A stretch of 64,000 nt of DNA from Favolaschia claudopus (Eukaryota; Basidiomycota; Agaricomycetes; Agaricales; Mycenaceae): positions 310,001 to 374,000 of the forward strand of contig JAWWNJ010000060.1 of NCBI GenBank assembly GCA_037176885.1, written 5' to 3'. The notes beneath the pieces were generated by a model. The model did not search any database. It saw only the letters and a program-made list of their open reading frames with translations, and was not told where the DNA came from. Numbering within the stretch: position 1 is the stretch's first letter; every line of letters starts with the position of its first letter. Shown here piece by piece: positions 7,086 through 55,552 of the stretch. Position numbers and translations under genes: made by a program.

Positions 7086-7104
7086 AGACAGTGGGCGTCA
7101 GAAG

Positions 7105-19212: not shown

Positions 19213-20418
19213 TGCGTAATCGCAAGGGTTGACTACCTACGGCTCGCGGACAATCTCGTGCACAGAATATGACGGCGTGGCGCCTCTTGCAGCGTGCTTT
19301 ATAATGAAGCTTGATGGTGTGCACGCAGGGGAGCTGAGACCCGTGTGTTTAGGGATGTCGGACTGATCGAGGGCGTACATCGAGGGCGCGAGTGCGGGTT
19401 TGCGTGGAATGTGGTATGAAACAGAAGAGTCGAGGGAATTCAGAAGGAGTTAACGGCAGGCGCGGATAGAGTACTTATAGGAGCGTCTTAGTAAATCAAG
19501 GTCAGCGAGAGAGAGTGCAGACTGGGCAAGGAAGACTTACCTGGATTGTGCACCTCCCATCTGCACAGCGTTCTCTCCAAGCCCCAAGACTCTCTAATCC
19601 ACCTCTCCTCGTCTTAACCATGCAGAAGTTTGGTTGGCGGCGAAAATTGACGGGAATGAAATTCCTTGGTACTGCATGTGTCGGCACTGAGCCTGGGTAC
19701 AAATTTGGTGGTATGAGTTAAAGAAGCAAGCTTGCAGATCAGGTCATGTTGTTTGTGCAAAAGCAAGAAAGTTCAAGGTCGCAGATTCATCGAGGAAAGG
19801 GAAAGAGCAAGGCACAAAGGGACTTGGAAAGTAGAGATGAGCTGGCACCACATGCCACTGCCAAACAGAGACAAATGTATAGCCGCCAATGCTTACAGAG
19901 GGCTAGAGGGCCAGGGCTGCCACTTCAAGTTCCCCACACAGTTTGCATGGAATGCCCGCTATAGAAATAGAACGATATGGCTTCTACAAACTTGGAGCTG
20001 AGATTACTAAGTAAACAATCACAGATAAGGAGACTTTCACTGCTCAGTCTTCCATTGATGGCAATTTGATGCTGAAGCCAAGCTGAAGCTGGAGGCGGAG
20101 TTCAACTTGTATTTCTGTGTATATATTGATTACTGTTTTATTCACCCAATTATGGGGTTAACTGATATGTTTTCCCTTATCCCTAATTGATGGAAAGGGG
20201 AAAATATCGTAAGCTAAGTAGTGGATACCTAAGTGGTAAGGCTATGTAATGATGGAAGCCGAGGTGCCGGCCCTCATCACAACCATCAAAAGGCAATCAA
20301 AAAGGGCCGGCAGGGAGCCAAAAAAAGGTGTCAGCCAGGGCCTGGCTAGCTCCACGCAAATAAACAATTTACATTTAGGCTAGGGCCAGGCCATTTAGTC
20401 TAAATATTACATCTAGGG
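19213..20418. other. Right part of the 5.9 kb element, no gene seen
   Basis: No convincing ORF or RNA gene. The last 110 bp are the right inverted repeat. Confidence 0.4.
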
Positions 20419-21402
20419 CTCGTCCGCCTTCGGATACACAGGCCTTCAGCCGCGCCCCGACCGCAACGGTAACACGGTGCTGCACGCTGCCTTCTCGAGC
20501 TTCACCGATGGGACTACCAGCACCGACGCAAACTGCCATAACGGGGGCAGACGGGGGGCCAGGCGTATCCTGCAGCGTCGAGTGGAACGGTGTCTACGGA
20601 CGCACCTACAATTTGGAGGTTGTATACGAGCCGTCCTCGAAAAATTGGGTCGGTACCGTCATCGACACCGTCACAGGCCAGCGAGTGCATATGGGAAGTT
20701 ACAAGCTTCCTTCGAGGGGCGAGCCGGCGGACCATTGCGCAAAGCTGCCGTATCAGAAGACCTTCTTTGGCGTCCCTACGACGACGCACGAGCTGTCGAA
20801 GGGTACGGAGAACTTGGCTTTCGAGATTGGGGATTGCAAAGGGCAAGTCGATTTCTCAACTACGAAGGTCGAAGGTGGAGTGCAAGTCACCTCTGGGTTC
20901 AAGGGTCAGACTGGAGAGTAGAAATGAATTCGCTGGCCTTAAGGCCGCACTTGCAAGAGATCTTGTTCGGACTGCTTGGGATGCAGCCATTCGTTGTTAC
21001 CATTGCTAGTTATGGTGAACTGTGTGGCGCACCATGAATCATGAAACCATCTGTATTCATTCTATTGTACTACAACACTTCGATTGAGAACTTTGCCGCG
21101 CGCAACGCTGAAAATCCAGGGTTTCTTCGACGAATCAATAAAACGATAAAGATTGGCTTGCTAGCAGACGTACCTCAAAGCCCACCAAGTCAGCTTTTAA
21201 TACTTACTCCAGGAATTCAGGAATTCGAGCAGCCGAAGCAGGAATGAATACACTTAGTACAGAGGAGAAATTTTGTGGAATTGAGTTGACTGTTGAGATT
21301 GAGCCCTCGTCGTCAACTCGTCGTCGGATTCTTGCCAGTGCTAACTGCCAAGTACTAAGGCTAAGTAGGTAGTACTGTAGTATTTCGGTCAATTCGCCCG
21401 GC

Positions 21403-22033: not shown

Positions 22034-22829
22034 CTGTGACCTGTGACACACCGGAACGAAATTTGACATTCGTCAATGGACCAAAAGCACCGTGACACGC
22101 AAAAATATTCGTCTATTGCCTGAAAACCGACCACTTTCCTCCACCCTTTGAGAAGATTATTAGAAGCGAAAACGGGGCAGAAATTGAAGATTTTCTGCTA
22201 ATCATTCATTTAAGCAGCATTGCCGTCAAAAGCGCCTGATTGACGGTGATGGCGCCTCGGCTGGCTTGATTTGGTATGAAAAGCCGTCATTTTCCGTCGT
22301 TCCGTGTCAACGGCGATCAGGTGAAAGAATTGGCCGCAAATTGCGCGCGGTTGAGCGCGCAGGAAGAAAAATACGCTTTTTCGACCATTTTTTCGGGATT
22401 TTGCGACTCTTTTGTCACATTCGTCAATCGGCGCGGTGACCTGTGACATGCACGAAAAATTTCGTCAATTCAGGTCCCTGTGACGCGTGACAGGCGAATT
22501 GATCGAAATAGTACAGTATACCGCGCTGTGCGTGTTGAGGTCAGGAACAGGCCGTATCCGAATCCTGTGCTGTCGGGAAACTTGGGCCACAGAATTTGCA
22601 CAGAATGGCCTGGGGACGCCTGACTCGCGGCCTGAGACTCTCGGAGTCAAGGCGCCGGAAGTTCCCAAAAGACGACAACGCGGTCACGTGGGTTTACGTA
22701 CTGTTTTCCACTTACCGTCAACCCACCCACTACCTCCCCGCTCCAAAGACTATACTCTATGTGCATCAGTCTAATTTCCTGAGCATAACCTTCCTTATTC
22801 ATTGCATTACATACGAGAAAGTACAGGGT
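22034..22829. other. Intergenic, no gene seen
   Basis: No convincing ORF. A phrase close to GACCTGTGACA occurs near 22037 and again near 22439, about 400 bp apart, perhaps an old repeat. Confidence 0.4.
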
Positions 22830-22990
22830 TTAAGAGAGAAAATTGAATGGTCGAGACAACACGAGGAGGGAAATCGTTGAAACACCGGCTACACCACTAC
22901 TTGATCCTTACTTCAGAAATGTGCCAATCGGGAGCGCAATCTATAGCTTTGGATAACACGGCGCGTTTGCATGTGCGCATACATGCAGCT

Positions 22991-25313
22991 TTACGCCAGT
23001 TGAGCGCGGCGAATCATCTCTTCAGCCGCTTTTGACCGAGGTATGATATCGCACTCATGAGGAATGGGGTAGCTGTGTAAGACGCGGAGAGATAAGTCCG
23101 GCGCAGAACGAAGTACGCAGAACTTACCACAGCATTCCTGACGTATATTCACCCGAAGGGTCGATTGGCATTCCGTTCTTGTCGAGACTCTTGGTGATAT
23201 TGAAAACCGAAAGAATGGATGCAGCGGAGATCCAGACACTCCACTGTGCCATATCTCTGCCCTGTATGGATAAGATTTGAGTGAATCAATGTTAGTAGAC
23301 CAAAGCTAGGTTTGAAATCTGACCGGACATATACGTCTGCCGAATCCGAAGGCTGGACTAGAGTCGGGCATTGTCGTGTTCACTTTCCCGTCTGCAGTTA
23401 GCCATCGCTCGGGAACAAACTGGTCTGTGTTTGGCCCATAGGTCGCCTCATCGTGAAGAATTGCCCTGCATAAAGTAAATCACGATGGTAAGAAAGTAGC
23501 ATGTATGTAGGAGCTACCATGTATTGCCAACCACGACGGACCCAGCGGGAATATAGTAACCTTGGTATATATCATCTTCCATAACGGCGTGAGGGACACC
23601 TAAAAAAAGTGTAAAGGCGTAGGAAGGTCAACTGGAAAACTCTCAAGATGTGATCATCGGGTACGTACTCAGCGGAGCGACTGGCCGCCATCTCAAGACC
23701 TCGTGCACAACGGCATCGATATACGGGATATTGTCCTCAAAATTTGGCAGACGACCGTGGCCTACAACTTCTTCGATAGCAGCTTGAGCCTTCCTCTGGA
23801 CCTCGGGATACAGTGTCATCGCTAGTATGAAGGTTCCAAGCGCCGAGACAGTCTGTTCCAGAGTCAGTCAACATATTGCGGCGCGGGTGCCAACAAAAAG
23901 CTGCACCGTATCAGCGCCGGCTTGTGTGAACATAATTCAAGTTGAGCGAATGTAGTACGACAATTTGGGGGCGATACTTACCGGCTATGAGTGAGGCCAT
24001 TAGAGCGAAAAGAATGAAAGAAATTTTCGCAAACGCTCACCATAACATGTGCCTAGAACATTCCTCAAAGTCAATTCATGGCCCTGCCGGGTATCGTCTT
24101 CAACACTTTCTTGCATCTCATCCAACACTCGCGACGCGATCGACGACTGAGCTGTTCCAGCGGCCTGTCATGGTACTTGGTTAAAGGTTGTAGGGAATTG
24201 AACACAAAAATTTACCCTGGCTTTCTTCACGAAATCGTACGGCAAATCGGGCATGGAATTTACGACGCTGAACCATTCCCGCGCCTGTTTCTTGAAGCCC
24301 GCGCCCGGCAAAAATTCTGGGACATATTTGAGGCTAACAGTGTGAACGTCAAGTACTATGGTAGAGCCGCGGGCGACTTACAATGGCAGGGAATCTACAA
24401 GGTACGCCCCTGGGTTGGCGGTAGCGGCCATAGCTTGGAGAGCTTTCTCGGATATTTCGACGTAGGGATCATTCTCCTCTAGGATGTCGATGCCATAGGC
24501 TGTCGATAAGATGATCATCCCAGCCATGCTAAAATTCAAGATTGACTCTTTCCAGGACAGTCCTGTAGTCACAAGAACTCACTGTCGCATGTGCCTTTCA
24601 TACTTGTGCGGTGAATCAAGAAGGAGCCGAAGCAACGCCCGTGCAGCTTCTAGTTCCTTGGGACGATGTAACAGGATTTCGGATGGTTGAAATTGCCTCA
24701 TGAAGAGCTTGCGATGCTCTGAGATATATATCAAGCCAGTTTGTCCAATCACAGGAGGTATGATCACCTTTCCATCTCGATCCATAACGCATGAATGCAA
24801 TATTCCAGTGGAATCCGACGCTTTAAATTCGGAGTTCAGTAACCGAAGCACAAGAAAGGCTTTTCACCGCACAGATCATTGAGCATCGGGAAAGGGGGTC
24901 TGAATCGCGAGCTTGAATCGAAAATATGTAGGCAAAAAAACAGCGAAATAAATACCGATCGGAATATATGGCGGATCTATTCTCCAGCAAATCAGTCGCT
25001 GCGGTGCGTGAATTGAGCACTACGACGGTGTCTCCAGCTAGGTTCACGCTGATCATATCGGAATCTACAGTAGATATGAGCCAGGTCTGATTTCCATTTG
25101 GCTTAGAGTCAACGTACCATATTTGCGAGACATCTCGATGTACCACAACCAGTTCCGAGTCTTGGGAACATCGAAGAGATTTCCTACAAAAGGAAGGCCT
25201 CTTGGTCCAGGAGGGAGTGGCTTTCCAGGGTGCCTGAAAGTTTGTATAACACGGGATAACACCAAAGGAAGCAAGAGGAGGCTAGCAGTCCAGACCCAGG
25301 ATGGAAATGCCAT
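22991..25313 (-). CDS. Cytochrome P450 monooxygenase, copy A
   Basis: The paralogue of copy B (37603-39938), with the same exon structure. The start is the ATG at 25313 (N-terminal membrane anchor beginning MAFPSWVWTASLLLLP) followed by a proline-rich hinge KPLPPGPRGLP. Also present: WxxHR-type WKEHRKLF, an I-helix AGADTT encoded over tiny exons, ExxR in the K-helix and the FGFGRR heme-binding loop at about 23340. It ends in IRRAQLA at 22991. A 3 nt exon (23982-23984) and a 14 nt exon (23907-23920) lie between short introns. The family is a microsomal class E P450 resembling fungal O-methylsterigmatocystin oxidoreductase-like enzymes; the substrate is unknown. It is divergent from the DUF3472-like gene fragment. 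No stop or frameshift was noticed. Confidence 0.88.
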
Positions 25314-27069: not shown

Positions 27070-27166
27070 GCACCAGTAATGTCTGGGCACACACACCTGC
27101 TTGATTTTGGCTTGCATGATTGAAATCTGAAGGTGTATATGGTGGGTTCGATTCCCAACTGGTGCT
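27070..27166 (+). ncRNA. tRNA-like unit A1
   Basis: A perfect 7 bp acceptor stem closes the unit (GCACCAG at the start, CTGGTGC before the last base). The T-arm has the box B sequence GGTTCGATTCC with a stem of TGGG/CCCA. The D-arm region is TAATGTCTGGG. The centre is longer than a normal anticodon arm. Unlike the others it has only TTTCTT downstream, not a clean T-run. Confidence 0.55.
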
Positions 27167-27492
27167 TAAGCAGGTATCTAGTGTGTGAATCTTTCTTGTT
27201 GGGTGGGATTTGAAATTAATTAATTTTGCATGAAGACTTAGGCTTCGATTTGTGTATTGGTTCGGATGAGGTTTGACAATTTGACAAGTCAAACCGAAGC
27301 GCTAGCATTGTACCAGGATTTTTGGCTCCGAGAATTTGTCCATGTCTGCCTTGGCGCGCGAGAGAGTAATACCGTGTCAGTGGATCTCTGGAAACACGAC
27401 AGTCTAGCCGCCGTATTGGACTCGACGTAGATCTATAAATGAGCATATGCATTGGTGATGTCTGAGAACATTAATATAGTTACTTGACAAGT

Positions 27493-27590
27493 ATGTTGGT
27501 GACGTCTCTCAGGCATAGTACGTTCACCAGATAAATACCTGGATATCTGGAGTAGCTATATCGCAAAGGGTTCGATTCCCTGCTGGTGTA
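27493..27590 (+). ncRNA. tRNA-like unit A2
   Basis: The acceptor is degenerate (ATGTTGG with CTGGTGT, mostly wobble pairs). The TGACGTCT start of the D region and box B (GGTTCGATTCC) match the cluster. A central hairpin pairs CCAGATA with TATCTGG. A T6 run at 27609-27614 could end Pol III transcription. Confidence 0.5.
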
Positions 27591-27965
27591 TTGGGTGGAA
27601 GATGGTGATTTTTTGTTAGATTCCCCTTCGTTGATTTTTGAAAACGAGATTGCTATTATATTCAGAACTATAGAGACTTTCAAGCCTAATGGACTCGAAG
27701 TTCTGCAGATAAAGTGCGCTCACATTCGCACCGGTGCATGACAGATAGAGCGATAGAGTCTTTTTTAAGCGGTTTGCTGAATTTTCGTTGATTTATCGTT
27801 CGCCGACTTGGGCCATGTTCATTAATGCGCATAAGTACAGCCTGATGGATAGAGTCAGGGAAAGAAGATTTAAGGAGGTCGGTGGATAAGCAATACCTGA
27901 TCTAAGAAGTAGAAGATCCGGCACAGTTGAAACAGAGGACTGAGGATTTTACTTCGATAGATCGT

Positions 27966-28057
27966 GCGTCGGTAACGTCTGGGACGTGCATAGATTCCGT
28001 GAGTAGAAGTCGTGAAAACTTACACCGAGTGAAAGGGTTCGATTCCCTGCTGGCGCG
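27966..28057 (+). ncRNA. tRNA-like unit A3
   Basis: The acceptor stem is GCGTCGG with CTGGCGC (two wobble pairs). The D-arm is ACGT-CTGGG-ACGT. Box B is GGTTCGATTCC in a 4 bp AGGG/CCCT stem. A TTTATTTTT run lies about 20 nt downstream. Confidence 0.55.
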
Positions 28058-28376
28058 TGTGCCGGAAGCCTGTGATTTATTTTTGCCTTTGTTTGATTCA
28101 AATTGGTTGTTGAATCTTAATATATTTTCTCTTTCTCAGAAAGAAGGATGAAACTTGAAGAATTGAGCGGTAGACTCCTTGAGAGGGATTGGGATGAGGA
28201 CGCGGAGGGCTTGCGGAAGAGGTAAGTGGGCCGTAGAGAGATAGAGTAGATCTAGACAGAGCAGACACTTTGAGTTGAATCTGAATTTACCAGATGTGAT
28301 GACATACCAGGCAAGGTAGTAGAGATGCGAGTTAGTTCATGCAGTGGTACTACTTCAGAGTCATTGACAAGTACTT

Positions 28377-28472
28377 ACGCCGGTGCCGTCTGCCAGGTTC
28401 GCCAATTCGATACTAGAACTTCAGAACGGTGCGGCTGCCTGGCGTGGAAGGGTTCGATTCCCTGCCGGCGCG
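28377..28472 (+). ncRNA. tRNA-like unit A4
   Basis: The acceptor is ACGCCGG with CCGGCGC (six of seven pairs). It shares GTTCGCCAATTCGA after the D region with units A5 and A7. Box B is GGTTCGATTCC. A T5 run lies about 25-30 nt past the 3' end. Confidence 0.55.
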
Positions 28473-28713
28473 TGTGTAAGCTTCTTCAAATGAGTAGTTT
28501 TTCCCCCTTTCATGTTTGATTTTCTTACTTGATTTGGTTTTTTGACTTTTGGAGTTTCGAGACGTGTTTCAAATAATCCACTGGACCAGGGATGCGGAGG
28601 GTTGGAGGGGTTGCAAATGGAAATAGAGAATTGAGGATACTTGAACAGATCGGACAATGTCTTGAAGCTGTGGCTTGATCGACCATTATACCAGGAATTT
28701 ACAGAGACCCAGT

Positions 28714-28802
28714 GCGCCGCCAGTGACGTCTGGGATGTTCGCCAATTCGATGCGAAGGGCGTGGCTTTATGGCGTGAAAGGGTTCGATTCCCTGTTGGCG
28801 CG
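28714..28802 (+). ncRNA. tRNA-like unit A5
   Basis: The 3' acceptor strand TTGGCGC pairs with GCGCC at the start, with a 2-3 nt insertion relative to A7. D-arm TGACGTCTGGGAT, box B GGTTCGATTCC, downstream T5 run about 25 nt away. Confidence 0.5.
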
Positions 28803-29067
28803 TAGGGCAATTGAAAACAACGGGTTTTTCCCTCTCATGGTTTTTTGTGCCAGAGGGTCCCTGACTTTTGGAGTCTCTTCGAGTCGGATCGGAAGAAATG
28901 TAAGTAGTTAGTCGTCGGCGTGCCTCGGATAAACCTTTGGATGGGGGACGTAGATGATCGGAACGGTAGCGAAGTTGAGACAGAAATTGCGGCTACTTGA
29001 ACAGATCGGACAATGGCTTGGGCATGGTTTGATAGAGCATTATGCCAGCTATGTCCAGAGACCAAGT

Positions 29068-29147
29068 GCGCCGGCGACGTCTGGGACGTCCGCTGACTCA
29101 GTGTATAGAGTCAGGAGTATGGAAGGGTTCGACTCCCTGCTGGCGCG
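29068..29147 (+). ncRNA. tRNA-like unit A6
   Basis: The shortest unit (80 nt) and the most tRNA-like fold: acceptor GCGCCGG with CTGGCGC, D-arm GACG-TCTGGGA-CGTC, a central 7 bp hairpin CTGACTC/GAGTCAG with an 8 nt loop, and a T-arm with GGTTCGACTCC. A T6 run lies about 20 nt downstream. Confidence 0.6.
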
Positions 29148-29530
29148 TAAAGTGGCTGATAACTTTTTTGTCGCTCTCACAGTGTTTGGTTCCGGGAGTT
29201 TCCTAGCTTGACTCTTCAAGCTTCGAGTTGCAATCGGATTCCAACGAACGTAGATCGTCGAGTCGGCGTCACAATATCTTGGATAATCCATTGGACGGGG
29301 AACGCGGAGGGTCGGAGTGGTTGTGGAACGGCACGGCAAGTCCGCTGTAGACTGAACTAGTACTGTGAGTTACGAGCGTATTAACGTACACGAGAAGTAC
29401 AGTTTCTTCATTGTAATGTGGCGGACAGTGGCTCGAGGGTATTGCTTGGCGCCTAGCAGGGGACTCCAAGCAGCTGCGGCTTATTAGAATTTTAGCTTTA
29501 CATTTATGCTGAGTAGCTCCAGAGCCAAGT

Positions 29531-29618
29531 GCGCCGGTGACGTCTGAGAGGTTCGCCAGTTCGACAGATCCAAGAGTGCCGCTGTGTGAGTGGGAGGGTT
29601 CGATTCCCTGCTGGCGCG
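29531..29618 (+). ncRNA. tRNA-like unit A7
   Basis: Acceptor GCGCCGG with CTGGCGC (one wobble pair), D region TGACGTCTGAGAGG, box B GGTTCGATTCC, T6 run about 25 nt downstream. It lies about 550 bp before the GET5-like gene. Confidence 0.55.
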
Positions 29619-29997
29619 TAAAAGGGTCCGAGAGGGCGATCTTTTTTCCCCTCAAGTTTGATTCGAGTTGGTTTCAAACGAGCTGACTTGCGAACTTTCA
29701 GGAAGTCAAACCAGAAGCTCGTCCCGTCCCGCAGGCAGACCACCATTAGAAAGGGACGCGGAGGGTCGGAGCGGTTGCGGAACAGTCAGGTAAGTCAGCG
29801 GTAGACACGCAAGAACGGGTCGAGCGTTTCGAGGAGTATCGGCTATATGTCCAAGACGTACTCGACGTCACTTCAGGTTCATGCTTCACAGTTATAGTTA
29901 AATGAATTGCGGTACACATTCGCAGTGGCACAAAGGAAGTTGGAACGGACGAAAGTCCGAGTCCGAATTTGTAATTTTGATGAATTCGAAGTGAATG

Positions 29998-30021
29998 CTG
30001 AGCGCTGAGCGCTGAGCGCCG
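29998..30021. repeat. Short GAGCGCT repeat upstream of the GET5-like gene
   Basis: Three to four copies of a 7-mer (GAGCGCT) in tandem, the last degenerate, about 150 bp before the start codon. Confidence 0.6.
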
Positions 30022-30169
30022 AGTTGGACTCGCTTGAGGCGGGAAAAGGAACGGAGGCCAGCCGGCTACTGCGAACGGCGGGAGTCGTGAACGGAGAGAC
30101 AAATGACTCGGCGTTGTTTGGCAGTGTTGTTGCTGTTACCAAAAAAGGCAACTGACGACAGCTTATTGG

Positions 30170-31522
30170 ATGGCAGAACAGGCGGAAGTCGCGTTTCTTC
30201 GAGTTTACCTCAACACCCTCTCATCCCAACCACTAACATACAACGACAACTACCAGCAACCACCACAGAACTCTCTCAAGAAGGTCCCAGTCTTACAGGT
30301 CATCGCTTCATCCATCGATTATCTCCTCCTCGTCTCTCATACTCACAACAGATCTCTCTCCCCCCGCCTCCCGTTCGTGCTTCTGCAGCAGCAGCAGCTG
30401 ATACAGCGAGCACCCTCACCCTGACCTTCAAATCCCTCAAACCCGCCGCCACCTTCTCCCTCTCCGCAATCCACCCCGCCGACTCCATCCACTCCCTCAA
30501 ACAACGCATCGCAGCCGAGCCAAACGGGCCCCCCGTCTCTGCCCAGCGCCTCCTCTTCAAAGGCAAAGCCCTCGCAGACGCCAAGCTCGTCAAAGAGTAC
30601 CCCAACCTCCTCAGCGGCGAGACAGTCAATCTCGTTTTGAAGCCCACCACTAGCTCTACGACTGAAGCATCTCCCGCGATGGACAACAACACCCTTCCCG
30701 CACCCAAACCGACTCTGTCGACAGGCGACCGCCCCGTCGTCTCCGCAGCCGAGGCAGCTGCGCATCCGCGGCGCCACACCCGCATCCCCTCCGTCGTCCT
30801 CTCCCCCTCCCCGTCCCACGACAACGCCGCCGGCTCCCCCGCCGCCAGCGTCACAGACATCACCCTCACGCTAGATAATATCGACACCGAGCCTGGTTTG
30901 GCTGCGGCCGAGTTGAGCACGTACCATGAGAAGCTGGCCGAGCCTGAATTTTGGGAGGCGTTGTTGGTGTTTTTGAAGTGCGTGGTTTTCTTCGTTTGCT
31001 TTTTTTGCTACCTCTACCTCCATTTTCACTTGTACGACACTCCCTTCCCTCCATTCCTCCCTCCCTCCTCCACTTCATCGTCACGCCCCATCCATCGCCT
31101 CCTTTCCTCCTTATACGCGGTTACATCCACCTCGTCATCACCATCTTCCCGCCCTTTACCCTACGTACCTCCGCTTCCCCTTCGTCTCCCTTACACACAC
31201 CTACCTTCGCCAACATCACCCTTCATTCTACCTCGCCTCCCCTCCCCCTCTTATTGTCCTTCCGCTCAGCCTTTTGCTTGGTTTCTTCATATATTCGAAT
31301 CTTCCCCCCATTCTCCCAATTCTCCTCTTCCCCATCCTCTCTTCCCCCCCTTCTCTCCTCCCATCACTAACACCTCCTCCTTGCAGCGCCTCCTTCCCCG
31401 CCCCCGCCGACGCCGCGCGCGCCTGGGAGGACTTTCTGCGCGCCAGCAAGAACACACTGACCGCGAGCGAGGTCGCAAGGATCAGGGATCGGTGTGGGGT
31501 TAGTGGGATGGCGGGGACGTAG
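30170..31522 (+). CDS. GET5: GET complex subunit Get5/Mdy2-like, ubiquitin-like domain
   Basis: Exons 30170-30298, 30352-30977 and 31387-31522 give 296 residues. The N-terminal part (about 1-43) resembles the Get4-binding region. A ubiquitin-like domain (about 60-135) contains LTLTFKSL, DSIHSLKQRIA, QRLLFKGKALAD and the ETVNLVLKP strand. A Ser/Pro linker follows. The C-terminus (FW...FLNASF, RAWEDFLRASK, EVARIRDRCGVSGMAGT) resembles the Get5 dimerisation segment. Get5 bridges Get4 and Sgt2 and helps deliver tail-anchored proteins to the ER. The first intron donor is GTCATC, which is weak. The second intron is 409 bp and very pyrimidine-rich, far longer than the others here. The gene lies between the two tRNA-like clusters. 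Confidence 0.75.
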
Positions 31523-31863
31523 GGAAGGAAATTCAAGGGAGGGGGAGTTCGGAGGGGAGATAAGAGCAGGAATACGTTGAGCGGGGTGAGGCGGCGACAG
31601 CGATGACGAGGGTTAGGTGTAGGGTTCGTGGCATGGCGGGATGTAAGTGGTGTCACGGGAAAAGGGTGGGGGAGGAGTGAAGAGAGGCGAAGGGAAGAGG
31701 GTGAACAGCACGAAGGTGAAGATAAAGAAGGAGAGAGGGTATGAGTCGCGAGGGAGCGACAAGGCGAGTGCGCCGCAAGAGCGTAAGGTGGTGATGGTTT
31801 CCGTTGTTTTTTCTCTTTCTCTCTGTCCTGTCTGGTTTTTGCGAATTCGAATCGCATACATTA

Positions 31864-33156
31864 GTACCGTTCAGAGTAGCCGCTGCTGGCAGCGGCAGCG
31901 GCAGGCAGTTCCCATAAGCGGTCATGTGTTGGCGTGACAAATGTCACACTTTTGATCAATCGTGAAATTAACGCGTCTAACTGACTGAATTCTGGATGCA
32001 GGAGTCAGTCAAAAGAATGAGTACATGTACAGATTGTATCCCACACCTCAGACGGGTCTTTTTTCCCTATAATTACAAGCCGATTATATTTTTTCTCCAC
32101 CTCCGCGAACATTTTCCGAAGTAAATTATGGTTATCAGCTTCCCAGGTATGGCGGTCAGTTTGTAGTTTTAATCAAATTCGTATAAAGTGTGATTTTGGT
32201 GTAGAAAATGTTCAAAATGAAGACATACACAAGAAAACTTACCTTGCCATCTTTTCACCGCAGTGCGTAAAGTTTTTCACGGCGAAGTGTAAAAACTTTT
32301 TGTGTTTGAGTGTAAAAAGTTTGTATCGGTCCGAGCTCCGATGGCTGTACACTTTGATGATGAATTGATCTCTAACTCGGCATGTGGACTTGAACAGAGC
32401 TTTGTTCAACTCGGTTTACTGGTGCCTTTGAGATTGCCTGTCAGCTCATAAAGGGAGTAAACACTGCTGATTAGGCTGCATTTTGAGCTGGAGGAGGGGA
32501 CAGCAACAACCCAAGGTGTTGATTTAGGTCCCCTCCTCCAGTGCATTGTCACAATCTTAGGTTGAGTGCCACCCCTTGAGCTAAAAGAAGCAAATTTAAA
32601 GCTCCTTTATATGGCTCTGTGTACTGGCCCTACCTGAGCAAGAAATACTACCTAGCCCCCCACTGAACGCAATAGGTTGAATATTTAAACATCTCGGCCA
32701 TCACCTCGCATCAAATACGCAGCCACCGGACTTCGGACCGACCCAAACTTTTATGCTGACGGGCAAAAACTTTCACTCGACTACTCAAACACTTTCTACT
32801 CTACTTGAGTGAAAGTTTTTACATTTGTAAAAAAAAGCTAAGTTTTGAAGGTTTTGCTCTTTCTTTTTCTCCTTTGCCTCAGAATGGACATTTTATATTG
32901 ATTTGATTAAAACGACATACTGACCGCCATACCCAGGAGATAGGTGCGAGAGTGGGGCCATTTTTTCTAGGGGGCATGGCAGTGTATTGCGTCGAAATAT
33001 CAAGAGAAAAGCACAAGAGGAGGCGCGTAGAGAGAGTACAAAGAATATTGGAAGAGAGTGAGACGAAAAAGGAAGGTGATGGGTGTGACAGCACATGGCC
33101 ACTTATGGGAAGTGCCTGCCGCTGCCGCTGCCAGCAGCGGCTACTCTGAACGGTAC
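31864..33156. mobile_element. 1.29 kb inverted-repeat element flanked by TA
   Basis: The terminal inverted repeats are about 60 bp, beginning GTACCGTTCAGAGTAGCC and continuing with a CTGCTGGCAGCGGCAGCGG stretch, with only a few mismatches. Both ends abut TA (31862-31863 and 33157-33158). It has no coding region of its own and hosts a second element. It starts about 340 bp after the GET5-like stop. Confidence 0.88.
32150..32929. mobile_element. 0.78 kb TA-flanked inverted-repeat element nested in the previous one
   Basis: The ends are TGGCGGTCAGTTTGTAG and its inverted counterpart, followed by GTTTTAATCAAAT in both. TA dinucleotides flank (32148-32149 and 32930-32931). Internal AGTTTTTACA-like segments also pair in inverted order. 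No coding region. Being inside 31864-33156, it is the younger insertion, unless both moved as one composite. Confidence 0.75.
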
Positions 33157-33400
33157 TATTGTACAAAGCTGCTGTTCTCGTGATCGTACTCTACCAAAGA
33201 TTCCAATAATGTCAAACATACCTGGCCAGTACTTAAGTTACCACGGATGTGACTACCAGGTCAGCTGCTCTCGAAACGCTGGGTCATTCATCTTTTCGAA
33301 TCGGAATGGTCTCGCGATATTCCTTGTCGAATTGTCGAATTATAAAAGAGAAGAAAGAAAGAAGAAGAAGAAAAAAAATTTGAAACTGAGTGGAAGTGTC

Positions 33401-33496
33401 TGCACCGGTGGGGAGTCGAACCCCTTCCCGCCATCGTATGACCACTTCCACATTCTACGCATCAATACGGCGCATGTATCCGTACAACACCGGTGC
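33401..33496 (-). ncRNA. tRNA-like unit B1
   Basis: A perfect 7 bp acceptor (GCACCGG/CCGGTGC, discriminator A). The D-arm is TGT-ACGGAT-ACA, with box A-like A14 and GG positions. The T-arm is GGGGTTCGACTCCCC. The central stretch of about 45 nt is closed by CGCC/GGCG. A T8 run follows about 25 nt downstream on minus. Confidence 0.65.
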
Positions 33497-33742
33497 GTGT
33501 TTGGGCTGAACGAATTCAATTAGGATAGAGCGAGTGGTTGGGATGGGAAACCTCGTTCTACTAGAAAGAGGAGGAGGTAATGAGGCGGGGAAGTTCGATG
33601 TGAATTCATGTACCTAATTTGAGAAAAGTCCATTGGTTTACTCAGGTTGAACTGGACTACTGTAAGTACATACTTAGACTTTTTCGAAACAGCACATCGG
33701 AGAAAAGAAAAATGGGGTGAAAAACATGCCGAATTGAACATA

Positions 33743-33835
33743 TGCACCGGTGGGGAGTCGAACCCCTTCCCGCCGTGGGAGAATGCATCGTTCTACTCTA
33801 AGTAGCGCGGCGGATGTATCCGTACACACCGGTGC
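33743..33835 (-). ncRNA. tRNA-like unit B2
   Basis: The acceptor and T-arm are identical to B1. The D-arm is TGT-ACGGAT-ACA. The centre is enclosed by a 5 bp stem CCGCC/GGCGG, like an anticodon stem carrying an intron or a long loop of about 33 nt. T5 runs follow downstream on minus. The best preserved of the second cluster. Confidence 0.65.
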
Positions 33836-34091
33836 TTGTAAATTGGGTTGAATCTCTGGGGAGTTGTTGAGAATGACTCAGATGGGAGTTGATTTTTTAT
33901 TAGTACAAGAGTCAAGACTGAGCGTAGAGTTCTGAACTTTCAAGTTGACAAGGTTGGTTGATTTCTATGTGAATTTATTCAAAGTGTTACAGTGGGAGTT
34001 GAAGTTGAAGTGGACTACTTTTTCCATACAATAGCCTGAGCATATTGGGGGAAAACAAGGGATTGAAAAATATCTCAACCAGGGCATACAA

Positions 34092-34205
34092 CGGCGGGGA
34101 GTTGAACCCCTTCCCGTGAATCATACATAGTTATTTCCCATGTAAATGTTGACAAACCCGGTCCAGGCGAATGCATCCATAGAAATGGTTCCTGCCCAGG
34201 ACGTG
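34092..34205 (-). ncRNA. tRNA-like unit B3 (degenerate)
   Basis: The T-arm (GGGGTTCAACTCCCC) and a downstream T5 run fit the family, but the acceptor does not pair well and the 5' boundary is uncertain. Confidence 0.35.
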
Positions 34206-34414
34206 TTTGCTTTTCTCGGACATGATATAATTGAATTACAGATTCGACCATGCATAGATCTCGTCAGGTATGTTGAAACTTTCGGGTTGATCACTTTGAA
34301 TTCATCATAAGTAATCTACGAGCCGTTGAACTTGGAGGATTGAACGATAGTCGAGGCTTTTCAGTGGATTTTTACTTGCTGATAGTGCAAAAAAGAGGGT
34401 ATTCCAGATTATGC

Positions 34415-34514
34415 AACACTAGCGGGGAGTCGAATCCCTTGACTCTGTTGCTCAGCATTTACAGGTGGTGTATACTAGTAAATGCAAAATGTCTGTAGCC
34501 TACAGAACCAGTGC
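34415..34514 (-). ncRNA. tRNA-like unit B4
   Basis: The acceptor GCACTGG pairs with CTAGTGT (two wobble pairs). The D-arm hairpin is CTGTA-GGC-TACAG. The central 8 bp hairpin is GCATTTAC/GTAAATGC. The T-arm is GGGATTCGACTCCCC. A T6 run follows about 20 nt downstream on minus. Confidence 0.5.
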
Positions 34515-35319: not shown

Positions 35320-36114
35320 TCAGAACAAAATCTCTTGGAAGTTCGGCTTTGAAGCCAGCGCGCCCATTTTCACCTCGCCAGTCTCACCCTTGAACCCGCA
35401 GTTGACCTGCACTCCACCGTTAACCTTCTGAGCCGAGAAATCAACTTGCCCTTTGCAGTCCCCATACTCATAAGGCAAGTCGACCGTCCCCTTCGACCCC
35501 CAATGCGTCGTCGTGGGGTTGCCAAAGAAGGTCTTCTGATACGGCAGCTTTGCGCAGTGGTCCGCCGGCTCACCCCCATTCCAGGGATACCACTCGACGA
35601 ATCCAACCTGACTACTGGTGATACCGCCCACCCCGGAAGGCAGCTTATAACTCCCGATGTGCACCCGGGCATGGGTGACCGTGTCGACGACGGTGCCGAC
35701 CCAGTGCCCCGACCACACTTGATACACCACCTCCAAATTGTAGGTGCGGCCGTACACCCCATTCCACTCGACGCTGCAGGATACACCCGCGCCGCCGTCT
35801 GCGCCGTCGGAGCAATTCGAGTCGGTGCTCGTTGTGCCGGCGATGAAGCTCGAGAAGGCGGCGTGCAGCACTGATTTGCCGTTGCTGTCGGGACGGGGCT
35901 GGAGGCCGGTGTATCCGATGTCGGTGGTGCCTGTGAAGGCGAATTGCTGGGCGAAGTAGTAGCCGGAGATGTGGTCGGCTTCGAGGATGGCGATGGGGAA
36001 GGTGATCTCTGTGAGCCCGGTCGCGGGGACGTTGGTCATGGACCAGCTGGAGCCTACTAGCGCGTTTGCGCCGAGAGCGAGGGCTAGGATGACAGTGTTG
36101 AGAGAGAGTTTCAT
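35320..36114 (-). CDS. Secreted DUF3472-like protein
   Basis: A single-exon gene of 264 residues. Residues 1-19 form a signal peptide (hydrophobic core VILALALGANALVG). The body has IAILEADHISGYYFAQQF, GYTGLQPRPDSNG, the LHAAFSSF strand and NGVYGRTYNLEV, then HIGSYKLPSG, WYPWNG and YEYGDCKGQVDF. This order resembles DUF3472-type beta-sandwich proteins; that assignment is from memory of the pattern. A secreted carbohydrate- or surface-binding role is possible but unproven. It is divergent from P450 copy B. Two other copies exist in the window: the pseudogene split at 14362-21020 and the promoter fragment at 25555-25776. This is the only intact one. Confidence 0.75.
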   Translation of the reverse strand: MKLSLNTVILALALGANALVGSSWSMTNVPATGLTEITFPIAILEADHISGYYFAQQFAFTGTTDIGYTGLQPRPDSNGKSVLHAAFSSFIAGTTSTDSNCSDGADGGAGVSCSVEWNGVYGRTYNLEVVYQVWSGHWVGTVVDTVTHARVHIGSYKLPSGVGGITSSQVGFVEWYPWNGGEPADHCAKLPYQKTFFGNPTTTHWGSKGTVDLPYEYGDCKGQVDFSAQKVNGGVQVNCGFKGETGEVKMGALASKPNFQEILF

Positions 36115-36225
36115 TCTGCAAGCACCGGTGAATCAATTAGATTTCATCCTGTTTGAGCGTCTGCTTACCGGTGAAGATAGAACGTTAACGGGGAGTGTCC
36201 TAGTCAGCATGTTTCGACGACTCCG

Positions 36226-37602: not shown

Positions 37603-39938
37603 ATGGCATTACCATCCTGGGTTTGGACTGCTAGTCTCCTCTTGCTTCCTTTGGCGATATCGCGTGTCATCCAAAACTTGGCGCGCCGTCGACTCGGAAA
37701 GCCTCTCCCTCCTGGCCCGAGAGGTCTTCCACTTGTTGGGAATCTTTTCGATGTACCCAAGACGCAGGATTGGTTGTGTTACATTGAGATGTCTCGCAAG
37801 TATGGTACGTGGACTCACACTGAGTGGGGATTTAAACTCATGCATACCTGCTGCAGACTCCGATATCATCAGCGTCAATCTAGCTGGAAATACCGTCATA
37901 GTTCTCAATTCACTCACCGCAGCAAATGATCTGCTGGAGAATAGATCCTCAATATACTCTGACCGGTATGAGACTAGGTACTCCGCTGATTTACTAAATC
38001 GAAATTTGCGGTCCAGTCCGCCATTTCCGATGCTCAACGATCTGTATGTCATGCTAATCGTCTTTCCGTGACTTGCCTGCTACAATTTCAATTCATAGTG
38101 TCGGATTCCACTGGCACATTGCCTTCATGCGTTATGGGCCGAGATGGAAAGGTAGCTTGATCATTCTCAATCTGGAGGCACTGGCCATAACGCTTTGTCA
38201 TATATTGAAGAGCATCGCAAGGTCTTCATGAAACAGTTTCAACCCTCCCAAGTCTTGTTGCATCGTCCAAAGGAACTCAAAGCTGCGCGGGTGTTGCTTC
38301 GGTTGCTTCTTGATTCGCCGCACAAATACGAAAGGCATATGCGACAGTGAGTTCTTGTGACTACAGGACTGTTCTGGAATGGGTGAATCCTGAATTTCAG
38401 CATGGCTGGGATGATCATCTTATCGACGGCATATGGCATCGACATTCTGGAGGAAAATGATCCCTACGTCGGGATATCCGAGAAAGCTCTGCAGGCTATG
38501 GCCACTGCCGCCAACCCAGGGGCATACCTTGTGGATTCCCTCCCTATGTAAGTCGCCCGCGGCTATACTTACTGGTAGCAGACTTGATGTTCATACTGAT
38601 TAGCCTCAAATACGTTCCAGATTTTTTTCCCGGTGCGGGATTCAAGAAACAGGCGAGGGAATGGTTCAAAGTAGTAGATATTATGCCTCGTCTGCCGTAC
38701 GACTTTGTGAAGACAGCCAGGGTGAGTTTTTGCATTCAACCGCCGACGAGTTTGACCGAGTATCACGGCAGGCGGCTGGAACGGCTCAGTCCTCAATCGC
38801 GTCGCGAGTGTTGGATGAGATTCAAGAGAATGCTGAAGACGACGTTCGGCGCGACCATGAATTGACGCTGAAGAATGTTCTTGGCACATGCTACGGTACG
38901 CGTTTGAAACATCGTTTCCTCTCTAGTACTTCTGACCGCCTCATTCACAGCCGGTAAGTTTTGTTTGGAAAGTGTCGGGCTTCATTCACTGAATTACATT
39001 CGCGCAAGCCGGGGCTGATACGGTGCGATTCTTCCTTTGGAGCGATTTTCGCACTGGTATATTCATGTATCGACAGACTGTATCTGCGCTTGGTACCTTT
39101 ATACTTGCGATGACCATGTATCCCGAGGTCCAGAAGAAAGCTCGAGCTGCTATCGACGAAGTTGTAGGCCGCGATCGTCTGCCAGATTTTGAGGACAGTA
39201 TCCCGTATATTGATGCCCTTGTGCATGAGGTCCTAAGATGGCGTCCAGTCACTCCACTCAGTACGTACCCGAAGATCAAATCTTCAGAGTTTTCATGTTT
39301 AACTTGCTACGCTTTTACAATCTCAGGTGTCACTCACGCCGTTATGGAAGATGATATATATAACGGTTACCATATTCCCGCTGGGTCCGTCGTGGTTGGC
39401 AATGCATGGTAGGTCCTATGTACATGCTGCTATCTTCCTGTCGTGATTTATCCGAGTCTCCATGCAGGGCAATCCTTCACGATGAGGCGACTTATGGGCC
39501 AATGACAGACGAGTTTGTTCCCGAGCGATGGCTAACAGCGGACGGGAAATTGAACACGGAAATACCTGACTCTAGTCCAGCCTTCGGATTCGGCAGACGT
39601 ATATGTCCGGTCAGACTACATCCCTGTGTCTTCCTGTTTCTCCTGCTTAATGATTCCTCAGGGTAGAGACATGGCGCAGTGGAGTGTTTGGATCTCCGCT
39701 GCCTCCATTCTTTCAGTTTTCAACATCAACAAGAGCCTCGACAAGAACGGAATGCCAATCGAGCCCTCTGGTGAATATACATCAGGAATGCTGTGGTGGG
39801 TCCTTGACTACTTTGTTCTTCACCGGTTTGACCCTCCCCGCCTCACACATGTACAGCTACCCCATTCCTCATGAGTGCGATATCATACCTCGGTCAAAAG
39901 CGGCTGAAGAGATAGTTCGCCGCGCTCAACTGGCGTAA
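37603..39938 (+). CDS. Cytochrome P450 monooxygenase, copy B
   Basis: Fifteen phase-consistent exons: 37603-37804, 37857-37965, 38017-38043, 38099-38151, 38211-38346, 38401-38547, 38604-38721, 38772-38895, 38951-38953, 39009-39022, 39077-39260, 39327-39408, 39468-39609, 39662-39795, 39857-39938; 518 residues, a normal P450 length. Features: N-terminal membrane anchor, KPLPPGPRGLP hinge, WKEHRK C-helix, I-helix AAGADTTVSALG, ExxR in EVLRWRP, PERW and the FGFGRRICPG heme loop. It should be an ER-anchored heme-thiolate oxygenase needing a P450 reductase; the substrate is unknown. The exons of 3 nt and 14 nt encode the I-helix core. One donor (39610) is GTCAGA, slightly unusual. It is the paralogue of copy A, in opposite orientation. 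Confidence 0.9.
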
Positions 39939-40438
39939 AGCTGTATGTATGTGCACATACAAACGTGTCGTGTAATGTTGTCTAATGTTATAGAACGCGC
40001 TCCCGATTTGCACATTTCTGAAGTAAGTATCAAGTAGACTGAGTGGTGTTTCGACGATTTCCTTCCTCGTGTTTTCTAGACTATCAATTTCTCTCCTGAA
40101 CTGTCTACTTTCTTGAATGCAATGCAATCAAGGAAGTTCAACTCGCAAGGGTTTTGTTGACCATCATGAGTAGAGTCCGAATTTGAACAACACGGCAGAA
40201 GCGCGAGTTCACGTGATCGCGTTGCCCTCATCCCTTGCCTCATTCTCCGTCTTGAGACTTGCTTGAGACCTCCCATTTTTGTGGCCGCGCTTTTCCTTCA
40301 CAGTCCATCCTGCAAATTGGAATTCGTTGCGAATGGTTTCCCGACAGCAGAATCCAGACACAGCCCCGACACGCCGAGTCACTCCATCATGATGTCCTTT
40401 GGCAGGCGGGCGCCCATCCTCAAGCTTTCTCCTTAACC

Positions 40439-51769: not shown

Positions 51770-54700
51770 TCAAAGGTTGCTCTGGGCCGCCTGACTCTCT
51801 TCAGCAGGCTGAGCACCCACAAGCCCCAGCATATGATCCACGATCTCATGCGGCGTCGTAACATGCCAGCTCGCCAGCGTCCGCTTGCTGCTGTGCCCCA
51901 CGGCGGTGGTGAACACGCATTCGGGGCGGATCGCGAGATCGACGGGCGGCGCGTCGGCCTTGTCTTCGAAGAGCGTAACACTGAGCGGGGCAGGCATCGT
52001 GGCCTTTGTTGCACCGGTTTCGAAGAGGATGAGTGCGCGGAACATGTCTTCGTCCGTCTGTGATGATGCGTGAGCGAGTGTATGCAGCCGGAGGAGGAGT
52101 AGGAGACACACCTTGTCGTCGCCGGCACAGAAGATGAACTCCGCATCCGGGTTTTGGTACAATAAACCCTTGACGATCTCGCCCTGCATTAAGTCTATCA
52201 GAGAAGTCCCACTATGAGCCCGCGCAGACGCACCTTGTTCACCGCCCTAGGTCGGACTTCCAAGTTCTTCTTCCCCACCAACACTGCACCGGACAGTTAG
52301 TCGGCCATATGCGACGGACGCCCATGACAACGTACCCTCAATCGGCCGCTTGTGCGCAAGGTTATTCTCAAGCAAATCCTGACACTGGTGGCACTGGAAC
52401 AGCCTAGCATACGCCATTTAGCGTCCCTCCCGCATTAGAAACGAGACGTTCAACGCACCCCCACTCAGGATCACTTCCCCGATAATGCCACGTAATCGAG
52501 CTCTTCTTCATCTCCACAGCACTCCCCGTCGTACGCTTCATGATATCAGCACCTCTCACGAAATTTGTTTGCAAGTAAACGCACCTCAGTATAATACTTG
52601 AAAATTTCCTCCACCTCCCCCATCCAGCTCATATCCAACTTCTCCGTCAAGTTCACCCACTCCTTCGCGCCGGGCGAGCGCATGAAGCCCCCGTGCTCCG
52701 CGCTGAAGCCGAGGCGCGGGAGGTGTCCGAGGTGCTGGTCGAGGAAGGCACCGTCGCGGCCGGAGATGATGTATACGAGGTTACGCTCGTCGGCGCAGAG
52801 CCGCTCGAGGGCGTCGAGCGTCGCGGCGGAGGGGACGGCCATAGAGGGCGTTTTGACGATGGGTGCGAGTGTGCCCTGTGGAGAAAAAAGGGTTAGGGCT
52901 AAGATCGAAAGAAAATGGCGACTGGGGAGAAGAAAGGACATACGTCGTAGTCGAAGAAGAACAGCCGTTTCTTCGCGTCATGGTATCTGGTCTCCAGGAC
53001 TTCGCGGGGAATATACGGTGTCCGTCTCGCAGTTTCCTACACACACCACACACACATCAATTCTCCGTACGACTGCATTCAAACCCAGTCGAAGAAACGC
53101 TGCGTACCTTCCCACCCAACTGCCCAAGCAACATCTTGACGAGCACAGCAGCCCACGTATGTGACGTGTGCGTCGTAACGACCTTATGTAGCGCCGCATG
53201 TCTTGCCTCCTTCTCCGGTGCCGACATCAAGAGGCCCTCGTTTATCGCCGCTGCGACGTCCTGGAAAGAAAGTCGAAGGTAATGAGTACATCAATACATT
53301 ACTATTACTATAGTAAGTAAGGGCGAGAAGGGAACGCACCCCAAGGTTCCACGGATTCACCATGAGCGCTTGTTCCATGTGCTTGCTGATGCCCATAAAC
53401 TCACTCAATACAACCGGGGATTTGTTTGTTTTTGCCTAAGATGGAGTTAGCATTAATTATGTCGACATATAAGAAGTGAAGAGAGGGCTGGAGCGTGATT
53501 CAAACCTACCTGCGCGATAACAAACTCCATACTCGTCGTATTCATACCATCGCGAAGCGGTGTAATGACTGCCAGGTCCGCAACGCTGAGGAGGGCGTAG
53601 AATTCGTCTTTCTTGAGAGTTTGGTGACTAGTAAAGTATGAGCATGAGTATCGTGTATCAGAACTTGAGCGAGACGCTACTCACTAGTGATGCACCGGTA
53701 CGAAATCGAGACTCCCAAACTCGCCGTTGATGTTGGCAACGAGCTCGCTGATTTGACGCTCGAGTTTAGGCGAGTCCGTCAGCGAGGGGGAGGTGACCTG
53801 TCAACAAAGTATTTTAAGTTGATTCTCTCCGTGGAATTTATAACAAAGCAGAAAAGAAAAAGAAACAGAAACAGAGAAATAGCCCCACCTGAATCAAGAC
53901 CACATTCCCCACCCACCCGGGGTACGTCCTCAACAGCTTCTGAAACGCCTGCAACTTCTGCAAAACACCCTTAACGACGTCGAGCTTGTCTCGCCCGACG
54001 ATGATCTTCTTGTTTTGGTAGTGCGAGCGGAGGGCATGGATTGCGGGGGGGATGCCGGGTCGGAGGCTGCCATCATGATATCATTCCGTTAGCAAAAAAG
54101 ATAGCGGGATGAGATGGGAGAGAAACGTACATATCACGAGCGACGCGTTCTGCGTCAACGCCTACGGGGCAATGGGTAACAGCGGTGACGTGTCCCTCTG
54201 CGTCGATACCGCGCGGAGTGACTTCGTACCCGCAGACACGGATGCAGGTCGACAAGAAGTGTCTTTCGAGTTATTTTCGTCAATACAGACAAGTAACAGA
54301 ATCAAGGAACAACGAAAAACGCACCTGCTATACGAATATGTCTGGAAACACACTAAATCAGCGCCGACCATCCCGTCCAATATTTCTTTCCTCCTGGGTA
54401 GACACCGGAACACTTCGCTGCTGGGGAAGGGCGTATGGACGAACAAGCCGATGACAGCGTCGGGGACGATGGCGCGGAGAAGCTTTGGAACAAGGAGGAG
54501 GTGGTAGTCGTGTACCCATATCAAGTCGCCCGGCTCGTATACATTGGCGATGGTTTGTGCGAATGCAGCGTTGGCGGCGGCGTAGGCTTTGTAGTGCGAG
54601 TCTTGGGAAACGTCCTCCGAAGCGATATCTTGCCAGAGGAGATAGTGGAAGAGTGGCCACAGCGCTACGTATCGTGTATTAGGATAGATAGCGTGGATTC

Positions 54701-55283: not shown

Positions 55284-55552
55284 GGCGAAAAGAGGGTATT
55301 ACCCAGATATATACGTCTGATTATAAGCCTTTTGAAGGCGGATTATATCGTGGTTATCGTGATTTGGGTGGATCGCTGCAAAGGGATGAAAGCAAGTGCT
55401 TTTAGGGACAACTTCCGGTTTAGGTCATAGGTGACGATGCGATCGTCGAAGCATCGACCTGATTTCCCTTTCGACCGAGGTACCCCCGCCAAGTAAAATT
55501 TCAAAGTACAGCTAGCAGGTCCTATCTATCTGTCCCAGTAATTATTTGCATT

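What the first reader, a model, noticed from the sequence alone, without database searches (positions are those of the whole stretch)
27070..34514. Two opposed arrays of tRNA-like units with a variable centre and downstream T-runs
Seven units on plus (27070-29618, spaced about 340-470 bp) and four on minus (33401-34514, spaced about 310-370 bp) share a tRNA frame: a GCxCCxG/CxGGxGC acceptor stem, a D-arm-like hairpin and a box B T-loop (GGTTCGANTCC). Ten of eleven have a run of five or more T within about 30 nt after the 3' end. The middle 35-45 nt differ strongly between units. Box A is weak (C instead of A14) in the plus cluster and better in the minus cluster; the T-stem has a consistent 49-65 mismatch. 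This is not a normal tRNA gene set. It could be a Pol III-transcribed tRNA-like RNA family, amplified with its flanks, that holds a variable insert; or decayed tRNA duplicates or SINE heads. The variable-insert idea is inference.
Basis: partly seen in the sequence, partly recalled or inferred. Interest (0 to 1): 0.88.

Follow-up and report, generated by a model that had tools for sequence, protein, structure and literature searches.

The report
Mushroom tRNA-mimic RNA gene arrays
A wood-decay mushroom carries arrays of genes that look built to make tRNA-shaped RNAs that are not tRNAs: evolution has kept the tRNA frame, while a large loop that replaces the anticodon loop is much freer to change.

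Summary
In detail: 11 units at the stated places, 10 with a downstream T-run. The window lies in the mushroom Favolaschia claudopus, and the units belong to a larger family: 83 curated copies on 11 contigs. Across 81 copies 92.5% of stem cells pair and 16 of 20 base pairs show two-sided changes. Frames are more conserved than flanks in 21 of 21 paralogue pairs. A T5+ run follows within 40 nt in 73 of 90 units (random 9.9%), 70 of the 73 starting at 16-29 nt, and never lies inside a unit (0 of 90). They are not ordinary tRNAs: intron-tolerant ARAGORN of 83, with scattered isotypes, against 30 of 30 canonical tRNAs of this genome. The "variable insert" is a loop of mostly 20-35 nt on a covarying 5-bp stem. 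It evolves only moderately more slowly than flanking DNA, shows no unusual folding, and two conserved loops match nothing else in the genome, so a cassette or guide reading is unsupported. Best reading: a new family of Pol III-transcribed, tRNA-shaped noncoding RNAs. Transcription, processing and function are inferred; other species could not be searched.

The parts
27070..27165 (+). tRNA-mimic unit (type P1)
   Evidence: R1 68.7 bits; acceptor 7/7; no T5 run downstream
27449..27475 (+). remnant, 5' half of a unit like C16:1199227
   Evidence: read; drawn into a composite model match 27449-27589
27493..27589 (+). tRNA-mimic unit
   Evidence: acceptor 7/7, T5+ run 19 nt after the 3' end; composite match 44.3 bits
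27718..27740 (+). internally deleted remnant of a unit (ends approximate)
   Evidence: compare L022 and L024 copies
27966..28056 (+). tRNA-mimic unit (type P4)
   Evidence: R1 74.8 bits; T5+ run at 23 nt
28377..28471 (+). tRNA-mimic unit
   Evidence: R1 67.0 bits; T5+ run at 26 nt
28717..28801 (+). tRNA-mimic unit
   Evidence: R1 72.6 bits; acceptor 6/7; T5+ run at 23 nt
29068..29146 (+). tRNA-mimic unit
   Evidence: R1 67.2 bits; T5+ run at 17 nt; Rfam tRNA-Sec 30.4 bits, below cut-off 47
29531..29617 (+). tRNA-mimic unit
   Evidence: R1 68.2 bits; T5+ run at 24 nt
30388..31522 (+). ubiquitin-like domain gene between the two arrays (limits approximate); its paralogues lie beside the C11 and C16 arrays
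   Evidence: PF00240 E 9.1e-12 on 30388-30981; synteny
33402..33496 (-). tRNA-mimic unit (type M)
   Evidence: R1 78.3 bits; T5+ run at 23 nt
33744..33835 (-). tRNA-mimic unit (type M)
   Evidence: R1 72.0 bits; T5+ run at 19 nt
34088..34174 (-). divergent unit (type M3)
   Evidence: R1 20.0 bits, E 0.03; T5 run 17 nt downstream by reading; paralogue C11:448896
34416..34514 (-). divergent unit (type M4)
   Evidence: R1 32.7 bits; T5+ run at 21 nt; paralogues C11:448560 and C16:1209990

Best explanation
The units are genes of a family of structured noncoding RNAs that imitate tRNA. Shown from sequence: a 7-bp acceptor stem; a 4-bp D-like hairpin with a short loop that keeps GG in most copies; a 4-bp T-arm with a TTCGAYT loop; and, in place of the anticodon arm, a stem of about 5 bp carrying a loop of mostly 20-35 nt. 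Inferred: RNA polymerase III with TFIIIC reads box A and box B, starts near a CAA a few bases upstream, and stops at the T-run about 20 nt past the acceptor. The RNA folds into a tRNA-like elbow through the D-loop GG and the T-loop, and RNase P and tRNase Z may trim it to about 90 nt ending at a purine discriminator. Inferred with less confidence: the mature RNA works as a protein-binding regulatory RNA, like vault RNAs. The frame gives stability, export and a constant binding face, and the open loop is a loosely constrained second face that lets paralogues diverge. Identity as a selected Pol III-type tRNA-mimic family: about 0.8. This particular function: about 0.35.
For: Covariation: 81 model-aligned copies, 92.5% of 1591 cells paired, 16 of 20 pairs with two-sided changes, 240 such cells against 78 shuffled and 14-26 slid; on the structure-free MAFFT alignment of 31 hand-picked copies 90.1%, 14 of 20 pairs, 84 cells against 25.7. 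Selection: frame identity above flank in 21 of 21 mutual-best pairs, 0.920 against 0.663 with gaps counted against; between types frame 0.66-0.75 while centre and flanks sit near the shuffled baseline. Terminator: T5+ within 40 nt of 73 of 90, random 9.9%, 0 of 88 in the 40 nt upstream, 0 of 90 inside against 21.7% of same-length random windows. T-runs are avoided in centres too: TTTT in 6 against 12.6 shuffled. Start: CAA in the 15 nt upstream in 45 of 83, canonical tRNAs 20 of 30, random 22.8%. Elbow: TTCGAYT in 75 of 90, GG in the D-loop in 69 of 90. Purine after the acceptor in 69 of 83.
Against: No transcript was seen. Single-sequence folding does not favour the form strongly: mean z of whole units -1.39 and, by my reading, only 1 of the 6 minimum-energy folds printed shows all four arms. 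Box A is weak, with position 14 A in 55 of 83. Eleven of the 90 copies score under 30 bits, where model R1 also gives canonical tRNAs up to 29.6 bits. The structure was drawn by me from the copies on which it was then counted. The genome paper reports 86.8% duplicated BUSCO genes, so copies may include alleles and are not fully independent. Distribution in other species is untested.
Confidence: 0.72

Rival explanations
1. Intron-bearing or odd tRNA genes: the centre is an anticodon arm with an intron that splicing removes.
For: tRNA frame, box A/B, terminators; several plus units begin the loop with A-T-T-C-G-A, as an anticodon loop could. ARAGORN with introns of 83.
Against: The six calls name five isotypes (Arg twice, Lys, Gly, Asn, Phe), while 30 of 30 canonical tRNAs of the same genome are called (these 30 were chosen by the tRNA model, which favours the control). 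The U33 column has T in 12 of 31 aligned copies. The D-loop is 4-6 nt in most copies. Terminators lie farther out, first T4 at a median of 21 nt against 6 nt in 30 canonical tRNAs.
Confidence: 0.06
2. Decayed tRNA duplicates or SINE heads without a function.
For: Truncated copies exist (27449-27475, 27718-27740); tandem duplication with flanks is visible.
Against: Two-sided stem changes, frame above flank in 21 of 21 pairs, terminators kept and internal T-runs avoided. No shared body beyond the head: flanks of different types are at the shuffled baseline. Target-site duplications were not tested.
Confidence: 0.1
3. Precursors of small RNAs: tRNase Z would release a trailer of about 20-28 nt ending in U, or Dicer would cut the central arm, as in Pol III-made tRNA-miRNA fusions.
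For: The distance from acceptor to T-run is narrow, 16-29 nt in 70 of the 73 units with a T5 run, and differs from canonical tRNAs.
Against: Trailer sequence is about as variable as flank, 0.707 against 0.663, 13 of 21 pairs, p 0.055. The centre does not fold better than shuffled letters, mean z -0.19, so it is no pre-miRNA-like hairpin.
Confidence: 0.12

Closest known systems
Vault RNAs (animal)
   Same: Pol III type 2 genes with box A and box B, few clustered paralogues; a central domain with a paralogue-specific role (passages of PMC7904556). Terminal stem and variable centre are recalled.
   Different: Here D-like and T-like arms form a full tRNA frame in tens of copies. No major vault protein match was found (PF01505), but no control genome rang either.
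Dictyostelid Class I RNAs
   Same: Many clustered intergenic genes; a terminal stem with compensatory changes and a remainder variable in sequence and structure (passages of PMC7919456).
   Different: Class I RNAs are 42-65 nt with an 11-nt motif and a DUSE promoter element; these are about 90 nt with a tRNA frame and box B.
Gammaherpesvirus tRNA-miRNA-encoded RNAs
   Same: tRNA-like Pol III transcripts in arrays (abstracts in the listing; details recalled).
   Different: No second hairpin follows the tRNA part here, and the centre shows no excess folding.
Y RNAs and bacterial YrlA
   Same: tRNA-like module or Pol III small RNA (recalled; the search gave no paper that I read).
   Different: No TROVE/Ro60 domain was found in the genome (1 of 14 control genomes rang).
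tRNA-Sec (RF01852)
   Same: Best sub-threshold Rfam match of the units, up to 31.1 bits.
   Different: Below the cut-off of 47; many divergent copies; 7-bp acceptor; no constant anticodon loop.

Membership tests
Canonical nuclear tRNA | 7-nt anticodon loop with U33 and a defined anticodon, intron allowed | tested here: not met
   ARAGORN with introns 6 of 83, five isotypes; U33 column T in 12 of 31; control 30 of 30
Canonical nuclear tRNA | T-loop TTCRANY and acceptor stem | tested here: met
   TTCGAYT in 75 of 90; at least 6 of 7 acceptor pairs in 85 of 90
Pol III type 2 gene | internal box A and box B | tested here: inconclusive
   box B matches the consensus in the window; box A degenerate, A14 in 55 of 83
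Pol III type 2 gene | downstream T-run and none inside | tested here: met
   73 of 90 downstream, 0 of 90 inside, random 9.9% and 21.7%
Pol III type 2 gene | transcription by Pol III | not testable with these tools
   no expression data held
tRNA-Sec | Rfam RF01852 gathering score 47 | tested here: not met
   best 30.4 bits in the window and 31.1 in 18 other loci searched
Vault RNA | major vault protein in the genome | tested here: inconclusive
   0 matches to PF01505, no control genome rang
Y RNA / YrlA | Ro60 (TROVE) partner | tested here: not met
   0 matches, 1 of 14 controls rang; six-frame search without introns
SINE | shared body or tail beyond the tRNA head | tested here: not met
   48 nt on either side of different types alike only at about the shuffled baseline
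SINE | target-site duplications | not tested
   not examined
Dictyostelid Class I RNA | 11-nt motif beside the 5' stem; 42-65 nt; DUSE element | tested here: not met
   length only: mean 91 nt; motif and DUSE not searched

The most novel reading that the evidence does not exclude
A tRNA-scaffolded system in a mushroom: tens of paralogous tRNA-shaped RNAs each display a different single-stranded loop of mostly 20-35 nt, which pairs with or binds its own target (mRNA, transposon RNA or protein), so that the arrays are a diversified repertoire on a constant, Pol III-made scaffold.
Probability: 0.1. Interest if true: 0.92.

Novelty: new variant of a known kind. Interest (0 to 1): 0.74.

Why it matters
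If transcribed, this is a large, undescribed family of tRNA-shaped noncoding RNAs in fungi, with as many as several dozen gene copies in one genome, none of them matching an Rfam family at its cut-off in the loci searched. It would be a natural test of what a cell does with many tRNA mimics: how RNase P, tRNase Z, CCA addition, export and quality control treat them, and whether the anticodon arm is the place where a tRNA frame is turned into a regulatory RNA. Such genes can be mistaken for pseudo-tRNAs or missed by standard annotation, so they may be widespread.

Tried and rejected
Intron-containing tRNA: rejected. tRNA-Sec: rejected on score. Extended pre-miRNA-like centre: centre z -0.19 in 83 units, loop z -0.09 in 80. 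Leader-trailer pairing as a general feature: mean duplex energy -5.90 against -6.15 for mismatched partners, n 89; one strong case, C11:448896, -25.9. Upstream TATA: 0 of 82, canonical 0 of 30, random 0.8%. Loop targets: two conserved loops, up to 3 mismatches, hit only their own two copies. Short matches of 80 loops to ten held stretches outside curated units: 120 against 93 for one shuffle. The best real hit lies in a family copy outside the curated set (L020:9888-9985); I did not filter the rest further, so this is inconclusive. Partner proteins: vault and TROVE. Papers: ten searches listed no paper that I recognised as describing this family; only open-licence papers are held, so this does not prove that it is unpublished.

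Rows dropped: searches gave 55 and 40 matches at E up to 1; five were left out (L020:4311-4374, L020:7508-7594, L022:8352-8448, L082:75-139, L069:1-35) and one composite (27449-27589) was trimmed to 27493-27589, giving 90. Seven more were dropped for weak acceptor or T-loop, giving the 83. A1 holds 31 hand-picked copies. The five types (M, P, L, K, T) are my own sorting by place and T-arm.

Full report
What is there. The window is bases 310001-374000 of contig C60 of a 264.6-Mb, 460-contig genome. A protein encoded beside the arrays (35320-36132, -) is 96% identical to one of Favolaschia claudopus on a contig of 2,527,184 bases, exactly the length of contig C16 of this genome. The published F. 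claudopus genome is 265 Mbp with 86.8% duplicated BUSCO genes (PMC10905254, first of two parts of its text read). So the host is this mushroom (Mycenaceae), and some of the copies counted below may be alleles.

The eleven units are real. A 23-nt T-arm/acceptor pattern from the plus units has 19 places in the whole genome with up to 3 mismatches and none for the reversed control; one from the minus units has 51 and none; a D-arm pattern of a further type has 9 and none; a looser degenerate pattern has 135 against 42. Places lie on C1, C3, C7, C8, C11, C15, C16, C48, C60, C69, C106 and a few others. Around them I fetched 27 stretches and found 90 usable copies with a covariance model, 83 after stricter curation, on 11 contigs. 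Genome-wide counts are lower bounds because the model itself could not be run on the genome. Of the 90, 11 score below 30 bits, a range in which the model also touches canonical tRNAs (best 29.6 bits).

Anatomy. Acceptor stem of 7 bp, 7/7 paired in 58 and 6/7 in 27 of 90; D-like hairpin with 4 bp in 72 of 90 and mostly a 4-6-nt loop, GG in 69 of 90; T-loop TTCGACT or TTCGATT in 75 of 90. D-stems change in step: ATGT/ACAT, GTGC/GCAC, GTGT/ACAC, ACGT/ACGT, CTGT/ACAG, GTGA/TCAC. In place of the anticodon arm there is a stem of about 5 bp and a loop, mostly 20-35 nt by the fixed trimming used.

Is it selected? On a plain MAFFT alignment of 31 hand-picked copies, 90.1% of cells pair, 14 of 20 pairs change on both sides, 84 cells against 25.7 shuffled and 7-28 in slid versions. 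On 81 model-aligned copies the figures are 92.5%, 16 of 20, 240 against 78 and 14-26; that alignment leans to the structure. In 21 mutual-best pairs with flanks, identity with gaps counted against is 0.920 in the frame, 0.759 in the loop, 0.707 in the first 30 nt downstream and 0.663 in flanks; frame exceeds flank in 21 of 21 and loop exceeds flank in 15 of 21, p 0.0025. Between the five types the frame keeps 0.66-0.75 identity while centre and flanks are near the shuffled baseline. So the frame is under purifying selection and the loop under weak constraint. There is no sign of faster-than-flank change.

Is it a Pol III gene? A T5+ run begins within 40 nt of 73 of 90 units, at 16-29 nt in 70 of these; random windows of the same loci 9.9%; 40 nt upstream 0 of 88. 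Inside units T5 occurs in 0 of 90 (random windows of the same length 21.7%) and T4 in 10 of 90 (36.9%). Thirty canonical tRNAs of this genome have their first T4 at a median of 6 nt, the family at 21 nt, with 3 of 90 having none within 60 nt. CAA within 15 nt upstream: 45 of 83, canonical 20 of 30, random 22.8%; the base after the acceptor is a purine in 69 of 83 and the next is T in 75 of 83. Box A is degenerate. No upstream TATA was seen. Transcription itself is inferred.

Is it a tRNA? No, by the tests available. ARAGORN with introns of 83, naming five isotypes, against 30 of 30 canonical loci; the U33 column has T in 12 of 31. Rfam: nothing at gathering scores in the window; tRNA-Sec at 18.7-31.1 bits against a cut-off of 47.

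How it may work. The constant part is what RNase P, tRNase Z, export factors and elbow-binding proteins read in a tRNA (established knowledge of tRNA biology, recalled). The variable part sits where the anticodon would be. A simple reading is a protein-binding or riboregulatory RNA with a fixed tRNA face and a loosely constrained loop, working like vault RNAs, whose central domain carries paralogue-specific effects (passages of PMC7904556), and evolving like dictyostelid Class I RNAs, many clustered genes with a covarying stem and a variable remainder (passages of PMC7919456). It is not filed as a member of either. No TROVE domain was found, and the vault protein search had no working control.

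Evidence against my reading. Minimum-energy folds of six representative units show all four arms together in one (C48:1492512), by my reading; whole-unit z averages only -1.39. The structure was derived from the same copies. Alleles may inflate counts. Loop matches outside units, 120 against 93 for one shuffle, remain unexplained in part. Presence in other fungi could not be searched here.

Verdict. The window holds a real, unusual and apparently undescribed family of Pol III-type tRNA-mimic RNA genes; ten paper searches listed no description that I recognised. The repertoire idea for the loops remains open but unsupported.

Noticed in passing
window 31857-33163: A 1.3-kb element with 75-nt inverted terminal arms (93%) and nested inverted repeats. 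The C11 paralogue is uninterrupted at this place, with an overlap of about 10 nt that may be the target duplication (C11:450643-450652).
   Followed up: partly
window 22516-24984 and 38001-40131: Both stretches align to C16:1193.7-1196.2k in opposite orientation, so an inverted duplication flanks the arrays.
   Followed up: no
window 20379-20921 (+) and 35320-36132 (-): Two related secreted-type proteins; relatives of the second carry PF11958 in Mycena and other fungi, though neither protein gave a Pfam match at E 0.001.
   Followed up: partly
C11:448896, window 34088-34174, C16:1209650: In the C11 copy of this divergent type the terminal stem seems to extend about 11 bp into leader and trailer (duplex -25.9 kcal/mol); the C16 copy is weaker (-10.8) and the window copy looks partial.
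   Followed up: partly
L020:4311-4374 and L025:3275-3335: Two paralogous units of only about 60 nt that seem to lack the central arm, with a stem ending in CCTGCCAT.
   Followed up: no
window 1549-7097 (-): Long ORFs that look like gag and pol of a Ty3/gypsy-type retrotransposon (recognised from memory of motifs, not searched).
   Followed up: no
units genome-wide: No T5 run in the 40 nt upstream of 88 units against 9.9% in random windows: T-runs seem avoided before the units as well.
   Followed up: no
window 54165-55298 (-): Trehalose-phosphate synthase-like gene fragment (PF00982, E 1.5e-53).
   Followed up: no
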